In this document: positions 34,904 through 35,219 of the stretch, piece by piece
Layout: each line of letters starts with the position of its first letter
Numbering within the stretch: the stretch's first letter is position 1
DNA from: Turnera subulata
Taxonomy: Eukaryota; Streptophyta; Magnoliopsida; Malpighiales; Passifloraceae
Direction of reading: 5' to 3'
Length of the DNA stretch: 64,000 nucleotides
NCBI GenBank assembly: GCA_028386065.3
Contig: JAKUCV010006848.1
Location: forward strand, 34,620 to 98,619
The notes under the pieces: generated by a model
Seen by the model: only the letters and a program-made list of their open reading frames with translations
Databases searched by the model: none
What the model was told of the DNA's origin: nothing
Position numbers and translations under genes: made by a program

Positions 34904-35219
34904 CGGGATGTCTATCCCGGTGCTTGTTTGGTATTTTTGGGATGTTTATCCCCGTGTCGATTTTCTGTGTCTTTTGGAATAAGTATAATGGCATAATTAA
35001 TGAATAGTGACAAGGATGTCGATCCTTGGTATTTTGGTTAGGGATGTCGATCCCTGAGTTTGGTTTTTGATGACGGTAATATAATTGTCACGTGGTAAGT
35101 AGAGGTACGACCGGATGGTTAGAGACTGTTTTGTGGTGGCCATGATCTGGGTTCGTGTGATAAGCATGTCTATGCTTGGGATGTCTATCCCGGTTTGTTA
35201 TTTTTGGGATGTCTATCCC
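34904..35219 (+). repeat. Seven short hairpins with compensatory stem changes
   Basis: Perfect stems with a 4-nt loop (GTCT, GTTT or GTCG): CGGGAT at 34904-34919; GGGAT at 34939-34952; CAAGGAT at 35011-35028; AGGGAT at 35040-35055; AAGCAT at 35162-35177; GGGAT at 35178-35191; GGGAT at 35206-35219. Stem sequences differ between copies, but both arms change together, so pairing is kept. The first, fifth, sixth and seventh have loop GTCT. Confidence 0.9.

What the first reader, a model, noticed from the sequence alone, without database searches (positions are those of the whole stretch)
34904..35219. Array of covarying hairpins inside a solo LTR
Seven 5-7-bp perfect stems with a 4-nt loop recur in 316 bp. 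Copies differ in stem sequence (GGGAT, AGGGAT, CAAGGAT, AAGCAT), yet both arms change together. Compensatory changes such as GGGAT..ATCCC against AAGCAT..ATGCTT suggest that the fold, in RNA or cruciform DNA, was preserved. Possible roles are a packaging or translation signal, or a protein-binding array near the LTR's 3' part. This is an inference; the pairing itself is read directly.
Basis: partly seen in the sequence, partly recalled or inferred. Interest (0 to 1): 0.75.

Follow-up and report, generated by a model that had tools for sequence, protein, structure and literature searches.

The report
Shape-conserved RNA domain in plant retrotransposon
A plant jumping element carries in its long end repeat a string of small hairpins, part of it enclosed by longer helices, whose sequences differ between branches of the family while the pairing stays, which points to an RNA shape that the element needs in order to spread.

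Summary
The seven hairpins are real and beyond chance (7 against a shuffle mean of 0.21). They lie in a 2753-bp solo LTR, 33005-35757, with AGCAA target-site duplications, of a high-copy plant LTR-retrotransposon family. Copies found without regard to the hairpins keep them: at least three perfect units in 37 of 40, at least two array hairpins in 36 of 40 diverged copies. Diverged subfamilies carry other perfect stems (GGGGT/ACCCC, GGCAT/ATGCC, GGGTAT/ATACCC, CGGATAT/ATATCCG) at the same place. Stems confined to one or two copies are almost never compensated (1, against 61 broken units). One element lacks an upstream leader intron exactly, placing the array in transcribed RNA. Best reading: a cis-acting RNA domain selected while the element spreads, perhaps a packaging signal of elements without gag-pol; the role is inferred. 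Strand bias gave no evidence; an apparent conservation island was sampling bias. Rfam and nine literature searches gave no match.

The parts
33005..35757 (+). Solo LTR, 2753 bp, TG..CA; sense strand = window +
   Evidence: Ends and target-site duplication; orientation from primer-site-like and polypurine-like sequence flanking the LTRs of related complete copies
33000..33004 (.). Target-site duplication AGCAA, left
35758..35762 (.). Target-site duplication AGCAA, right
33331..33337 (+). TATA-like TATAAAG, candidate promoter (inferred)
   Evidence: sequence
33909..34730 (+). Predicted leader intron 1 (GTGAGC...TATAG)
   Evidence: Absent exactly in L059 and L069, two LTRs of probably one element
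34807..34839 (+). Donor-like GTGAGGATGG and following bases, highly conserved; possible start of a second leader intron, unproven
   Evidence: 99.9% identity at 34810-34839 in 27 copies; none of 10 copies (of 48) with the base after CCAAG changed showed an exact removal from there
34904..34919 (+). H1 CGGGAT-GTCT-ATCCCG
34939..34952 (+). H2 GGGAT-GTTT-ATCCC
35011..35028 (+). H3 CAAGGAT-GTCG-ATCCTTG
35040..35055 (+). H4 AGGGAT-GTCG-ATCCCT
35087..35102 (+). P0 outer helix, 5' arm GTCACGTGGTAAGTAG
35134..35147 (+). P1 inner helix, 5' arm TGGTGGCCATGATC
35162..35177 (+). H5 AAGCAT-GTCT-ATGCTT
35178..35191 (+). H6 GGGAT-GTCT-ATCCC
35206..35219 (+). H7 GGGAT-GTCT-ATCCC
35232..35243 (+). P1 inner helix, 3' arm GATCTGGCACCA
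35248..35262 (+). Hairpin CAGGTT-GAT-AACCTG between P1 and P0 in the window type; formed in the fold of 35134-35300 but not in the lowest-energy fold of 35080-35290
35271..35286 (+). P0 outer helix, 3' arm CTAGCTTATCCGTGAC

Best explanation
The array is part of a cis-acting RNA domain in the transcribed leader part (R/U5) of the LTR of a plant LTR retrotransposon. Two nested long-range helices, P0 and P1, hold a variable number of short hairpins (about two to twelve, stems 5-7 bp, mostly with loops GTYN or RCYRA); in the window type a second cluster of the same hairpins lies just upstream. Shown by sequence: the pairing is kept across subfamilies while stems, loops, spacing and number change. 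Inferred: selection acts on the RNA during the element's life cycle. Most likely the hairpins are repeated docking sites for a protein, first of all the Gag of an autonomous relative, so that RNAs without gag-pol are packaged; repetition gives many weak sites, so single units can be lost, gained or rewritten. My split: structure kept by selection, about 0.75; acts as RNA rather than DNA, about 0.7; packaging/Gag recognition as the role, about 0.4.
For: Hairpins far above chance: 159 in 44 copies (8385 nt between anchors) against 16.3 expected; downstream control 11 in 7240 nt; no shuffle of 200 reached the count in 33 of 44 copies. Conditioning on the loop only (2205 GTYN sites in 72 sequences), the number of pairs formed of 5 is bimodal: 365 sites with 5/5, 63 with 4/5, 108 with 3/5; about 2 with 5/5 would be expected with equal bases. 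RCYRA pentaloops: 69 of 238 sites have 6/6 pairs, 8 have 5/6. Seven recurrent tetraloop stems, all perfect, differ by double changes; in 94 sequences one perfect stem is confined to fewer than three copies, against 61 imperfect units. P1: 31 distinct arm pairs from 62 copies, own pairing mean -17.98 kcal/mol, permuted partners -14.75, best of 5000 -16.48; z -6.1, beyond all 42 shifted controls (z -4.6 to +3.4). P0: 34 distinct arm pairs from 57 copies, -15.37 against -14.38, 0 of 5000 permutations as good. Pair count on 15 distinct rows: 95.9% of cells paired (shuffles 90.8, slid controls 13-41), 14 cells changed on both sides against 5.4, covariation score 0.278 against 0.178, 0 of 500 shuffles each. 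Transcription through it: exact loss of intron 1 in one element that keeps hairpins. Internal regions of 4 of 4 complete pairs examined are 2.0-2.4 kb, longest sense frame 114-174 codons, so no gag-pol.
Against: No RNA data: transcript start, splicing and folding are not observed. The subfamilies are few, so independent compensatory events in P0/P1 are perhaps 4-6. In the pair count, the two measures that are least upset by relatedness do not exceed shuffles: pairs with changes on both sides 3 against 2.5 (291 of 500 as high), further pair types 9 against 9.5 (445 of 500). Six of 42 shifted controls have |z| of 3 or more: three negative, all at the offset that overlaps the 3' arm of P0 (-4.64, -3.24, -3.01), and three positive; P0's own z of -3.78 is thus only modestly special, P0 was found through such a control, and at its sixth pair 5 copies have unmatched letters. 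Repeated broken forms exist too: 25 of the 61 imperfect units belong to ten forms seen more than once. The 167-nt window segment folds no better than shuffles (z -0.53); forcing H5-H7 costs 3.7 kcal/mol, and the CAGGTT hairpin with them 12.5, because other pairings compete. The sense/antisense difference is mostly base composition (shuffled arms -2.79 and -3.28, real -3.63 and -3.03). Without biased sampling the array is hardly more conserved than its flanks (0.91-0.94 against 0.90-0.92). Type-3 copies L102, L129, L138 and L140 lack the outer part of P0 (-6.6 to -7.2). No autonomous partner or Gag was identified. L083 lost the array, though it may be dead.
Confidence: 0.5

Rival explanations
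1. The RNA domain is real but its role is in the host cell's handling of the transcript: export of a partly spliced RNA, stability, or translation past the long leader (for example ribosome shunting as in plant pararetroviruses).
For: It lies in a long transcribed leader with an intron; a short reading frame begins at the GATGG used as anchor before P1 and ends after 2 codons in 22 and after 4 codons in 23 of 74 copies with that anchor; pararetrovirus leaders use such structures (PMC5902531, start of abstract seen in listing).
Against: In the other 29 of 74 no stop follows within 6 codons, the window among them by its sequence; the complete copies examined have no gag-pol to translate; hairpin number varies freely.
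Confidence: 0.25
2. Mutational by-product: tandem duplication plus template-switch copying of one arm from the other makes and repairs perfect hairpins without any selection.
For: Such arm homogenisation is known for short inverted repeats (PMC8604942, start of abstract seen in listing); unit number and spacing change by duplication; one rare compensated stem, TGGAT/ATCCA in L069.
Against: Only that one rare perfect stem against 61 broken units; P1 arms lie far apart and still covary; such copying should also invert loops, and only two inverted-type 4-nt loops were seen, in L096 and L114, neither in a clear array unit.
Confidence: 0.17
3. DNA-level element: palindromic binding sites for a dimeric plant protein, or single-stranded/cruciform DNA during reverse transcription.
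For: The bases around the loop (ATGTYNAT) are nearly invariant in the window-type units (which chose units by GGAT or GCAT before the loop); palindromes are typical of dimer sites.
Against: Half-sites change as long as both arms match, which binding sites should not do; the loop is not symmetric; a long-range helix has no use in duplex DNA.
Confidence: 0.13
4. Self-complementary units serve RNA dimerisation: each unit pairs with the same unit in a second RNA molecule.
For: Every unit is self-complementary; unit H5 is the only AAGCAT unit of this LTR and can pair only with itself or with another molecule's H5; Ty1 RNA is modelled to dimerise through hairpins inside long-range stems (PMC5454406, abstract read).
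Against: Loops GTYN and RCYRA are not palindromic, so no kissing start; P0/P1 need no dimer.
Confidence: 0.12

Closest known systems
Ty1 RNA TIPIRT domain (yeast Ty1/copia-type element)
   Same: Structured 5' RNA with long-range stems enclosing hairpins, needed for helper-driven movement of a mini-element; compensatory mutations restore function (PMC5454406, abstract read)
   Different: Other superfamily and host; a pseudoknot rather than nested helices; no variable-number hairpin array is mentioned in the abstract; proven by experiment, ours only by sequence
Retroviral packaging signal (Psi) with long-range interactions, e.g. MMTV
   Same: Leader domain kept in shape by long-range interactions; Gag binds sites inside (PMC11449360, abstract read)
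   Different: Retrovirus with its own gag; to my knowledge not an array of interchangeable hairpins; no Gag identified here
Retrozymes
   Same: Plant non-autonomous LTR elements with a functional RNA structure in the LTR (PMC4918200 and PMC9695139, starts of abstracts seen in listings)
   Different: Retrozymes carry hammerhead ribozymes; no Rfam family was hit in this LTR
Template-switch homogenised inverted repeats
   Same: Short inverted repeats whose arms change together (PMC8604942, start of abstract in listing)
   Different: Here recurrent stems are compensated and rare changes almost never are; a long-range helix covaries too

Membership tests
LTR (solo) of an LTR retrotransposon | TG..CA ends and a short target-site duplication | tested here: met
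   33005-35757, AGCAA on both sides
LTR (solo) of an LTR retrotransposon | Other copies occur as pairs flanking an internal region with primer site and polypurine tract | tested here: met
   L010, L029, L031, L032: internal 1997-2404 bp; starts TTTTGGTAGCGGAGC in three of four, ends ...AATTCTTTTTAAGGTGGGTAG.. in all four; the likeness to a plant tRNA-Met primer site is recalled
Tekay/Del lineage of Ty3/gypsy | Polymerase phylogeny places it there | not tested
   No gag-pol in the copies examined; only the polypurine region resembles that lineage, from memory
Retroviral-type packaging signal | Lies in the RNA leader near the primer site | tested here: inconclusive
   Transcription inferred from one exact intron loss; no transcript data
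Retroviral-type packaging signal | Conserved RNA secondary structure with long-range pairing | tested here: met
   P1 clearly; P0 with weaker covariation; by sequence only
Retroviral-type packaging signal | Bound by Gag and needed for packaging | not testable with these tools
   Bench work needed
Known RNA families (Rfam 15) | Match to a covariance model | tested here: not met
   Whole window at gathering scores: one tRNA at 8296; five loci with arrays at E up to 1: one sub-threshold MIR474 match in L102, E 0.41
Retrozyme | Hammerhead ribozyme in the LTR | tested here: not met
   No Rfam match in 33005-35757 at gathering scores

The most novel reading that the evidence does not exclude
A new sort of retrotransposon RNA element: a 'comb' in which conserved outer helices present a freely rewritten, variable-number set of small hairpins, where selection keeps hairpins as such and not their sequence, serving as a multivalent recognition signal by which elements without proteins borrow the machinery of a relative.
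Probability: 0.3. Interest if true: 0.78.

Novelty: new variant of a known kind. Interest (0 to 1): 0.62.

Why it matters
How plant LTR retrotransposons, and above all those without genes, mark their RNA for packaging is, to my knowledge, poorly known. A paired domain in a family of hundreds to thousands of copies in one genome (836 exact matches to one subfamily pattern; 4883 first-look candidates) gives a definite, short stretch to probe, and the natural variants (types 1, 2 and 3) are ready-made compensatory mutants. It also shows a structure whose parts turn over by duplication while the architecture stays.

Tried and rejected
Conservation island: with copies chosen by array similarity the array looked strongly conserved; with copies chosen by the LTR tail the difference nearly vanished, so I do not use it. 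Strand test: sense pairing is better than antisense, but shuffled arms show the same bias; dropped as evidence. Second leader intron holding the array: 48 copies have a changed base after CCAAG; 10 of 48 were read and none shows an exact removal from there; neither shown nor excluded. A column-wise count on the MAFFT alignment of 36 copies was spoiled by inserted units and replaced by unit-wise counts. The first arm alignment (A3) had two rows (L133, L137) whose P0 3' arm was cut at the wrong place, seen by comparison; both were removed before the count (A4). The script kept 41 of 92 copies (17 distinct rows) and dropped 51, among them the type with a shorter P1 and copies with Ns or cut ends. 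A constrained fold used a wrong place for one hairpin and was redone. L069 and L085 hold stretches that read as the complement without reversal, which would fake covariation; both were left out of the pair counts, L054 (Ns) too. Scan of viral contigs for paired units: 0. The literature searches (nine of ten) showed no description of such an array in the lists returned; absence in print is claimed for these searches only. Odds changed on that check: structure kept by selection 0.8 to 0.75, RNA rather than DNA 0.75 to 0.7, overall 0.55 to 0.5, because of the two measures and the control spread; two rivals rose slightly.

Full report
Observation. The host element is a solo LTR, 33005-35757 (2753 bp), flanked by AGCAA. 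The window is a 64-kb piece of a 518.7-Mb genome in 7125 contigs, a plant by its genes (papain-type protease and DUF4283 frames; that these mark a plant is my reading; species not determined).

Family. A search with the array gave 3231 first-look candidates, of which only the best 40 were scored, all 95-100% alike. A search with the LTR's 3' tail, which does not depend on the array, gave 4883 candidates and 41 listed matches, the window among them. A pattern for diverged subfamilies had 836 matches, of which 40 were read. Complete copies (4 of 4 examined) have internal regions of only 2.0-2.4 kb with no long sense frame; primer-site-like and polypurine-like sequence beside the LTRs fixes the sense strand as window +. 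The likeness of the polypurine region to Tekay elements is recalled, not tested.

Do copies keep the hairpins? Of the 40 tail-selected copies fetched, 37 show at least three perfect 5-bp stems with 4-nt loops of the array kind (L069 and L085 counted outside their artefact stretches); the other three are a copy with Ns (L054), a copy with the array deleted (L083) and a distant one (L092). Of the 40 diverged copies, 36 have at least two array hairpins; L103 (cut by a contig end), L114, L117 (Ns) and L122 (one) do not. Between the anchors GGTACGAC and CTAGCTT, 44 copies with both anchors hold 159 hairpins against 16.3 in shuffles; the stretch downstream holds 11 in 7240 nt; 28 of 72 sequences without suitable anchors were not counted.

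Do both arms change together? Units chosen by 5' arm and loop alone (351, in the window and 51 other copies) have pairs 1 to 5 formed in 96, 97, 96, 95 and 89%; among 87 distinct units pair 3 is formed in 75 (3' arms dealt anew: mean 60.0, maximum 68) and pair 5 in 58 (mean 42.2, maximum 56), while pairs 4, 6 and 7 stay within the shuffles. Chosen by loop alone, 2205 GTYN sites in 72 sequences give 528, 737, 404, 108, 63 and 365 sites with 0 to 5 pairs. Seven stem types recur in three or more copies: GGGAT, AGGAT, AGCAT, GGCAT, GGGGT, GGGCT, GGGTT, each with its exact complement. With all 94 sequences (L069 and L085 masked at their artefact stretches), 435 sites are perfect, one perfect stem (TGGAT in L069) occurs in fewer than three copies, and 61 units depart from a common type by one or two changes: 36 forms seen once and 25 units in ten repeated forms. 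So recurrent stems are compensated and rare changes almost never are: what selection in the spreading lineage predicts, rather than continual arm copying; the repeated broken forms show that the rule is not absolute. Some GGGCT stems lie further downstream in the LTR, outside the array. A third class has 5-nt loops: GGGTAT/ATACCC, GGATAT/ATATCC and AGATAT/ATATCT (69 of 238 RCYRA sites with 6 of 6 pairs).

The enclosing helices. Folding of L105 and L104 (z -5.2 and -3.9) and of the window (z -0.5) led to a helix closing the 3' cluster. Its arms, P1, read TGGTGGCCATGATC x GATCTGGCACCA in the window..GACC x GGTC.. in another branch, TGGTGTCATGGCC x GGCCTGGCATCCA in type 2 and GGATGCTATGGTC x GACCTGGCATCC in type 3, with an unpaired U kept. 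For 31 distinct arm pairs (62 copies; 30 of 92 lacked a usable arm) own partners pair at -17.98 kcal/mol on average, permuted partners at -14.75, the best of 5000 permutations at -16.48. Of 42 control segment pairs at other offsets the mean z was 0.29 with a range of -4.64 to +3.39, six of them at 3 or more either way; P1 has -6.14. The three strong negatives share one 3' offset and led to a second helix, P0, GTCACGTGGTAAGTAG x CTAGCTTATCCGTGAC. For P0, 34 distinct arm pairs (57 copies, 35 dropped) give -15.37 against -14.38, 0 of 5000 permutations as good, z -3.78; GTCACG x CGTGAC (20 copies) stands against GTCACT x AGTGAC (15 copies), with 5 copies unmatched at that pair. The pairing of P0 is strong, but its covariation is only moderately above what related sequences give. 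The pair-counting tool, on 15 distinct rows, finds 95.9% of cells paired against 13-41% when slid; paired cells, cells changed on both sides and covariation score exceed all 500 shuffles, but the number of pairs with both-sided changes (3, two in P1 and one in P0) and of pair types does not. That is few independent events.

Is it transcribed? In L059 and L069, probably the two LTRs of one element, the exon end ..CGAG is joined directly to GTTATGATATCGGGC, exactly removing a stretch that begins GTGAGC and ends TATAG in the window (33909-34730). This is what splicing followed by reverse transcription leaves behind, and it places the start of the transcript upstream of the array, which that element still has, in part in L059. 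It is a single event. Whether a second intron begins at 34807 is open.

What it does. These copies have no proteins of their own that I could find, yet copies from several diverged branches keep a folded, non-coding leader domain; something acting on their RNA in trans is the simplest reason. Packaging by the Gag of a relative is my first choice (about 0.4), by analogy with Ty1, where a helper moves a mini-element and leader stems are needed (PMC5454406, abstract), and with MMTV, where long-range pairing shapes the packaging signal (PMC11449360, abstract). Export, stability, translation or dimerisation remain possible.

Results against. Strand preference is explained by composition. Conservation is not raised when sampling is unbiased. 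Identical units can pair with each other, and forcing the three hairpins costs 3.7 kcal/mol in the window, though P0 and P1 form either way. Some type-3 copies lack most of P0. Nothing was measured on RNA.

Noticed in passing
L069 (about 170 bp) and L085 (about 125 bp): Stretches that match the LTR as complement without reversal, which no DNA process I know of makes; probably an artefact of the held assembly, and a trap for covariation tests. None found within the window.
   Followed up: partly
window 34810-34839: Thirty bases after the donor-like CCAAG|GTGAGG are 99.9% identical in 27 copies selected without regard to them, the highest bin of those measured between 34690 and 35439; function unknown.
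   Followed up: no
L010:5421-7789, L031:4058-6054, L032:2629-5032: Internal regions of three of four non-autonomous copies carry an antisense stop-free frame of 251-256 codons (174 in L029); the 227-aa piece of L010 has no Pfam match; its end looks like a LINE endonuclease from memory.
   Followed up: partly
L131:33-92 and L136:17-52 (LTR-sense coordinates): Type-3 hairpins (GGGTAT accga ATACCC, CGGATAT gccga ATATCCG) also occur upstream of the 3' cluster in two type-2 LTRs, so hairpin classes mix between clusters.
   Followed up: no
window 54683-57021 and 58565-60906; 53369-53895: A 2.3-kb duplication (96%) and, nearby, a 263-bp tandem duplication (98-99%) that reads like a cysteine-rich coding stretch near a papain-type protease frame; recent gene duplication or assembly duplication.
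   Followed up: no
window 47853-49700, minus strand: 615-aa frame with DUF4283 and a weak zinc knuckle, probably of LINE origin (recalled).
   Followed up: partly
LTR 3' tail, e.g. L093 and L098: A further hairpin GGGCT gttg AGCCC with the same kind of loop lies downstream of the domain in several copies; degraded in the window near 35640.
   Followed up: no
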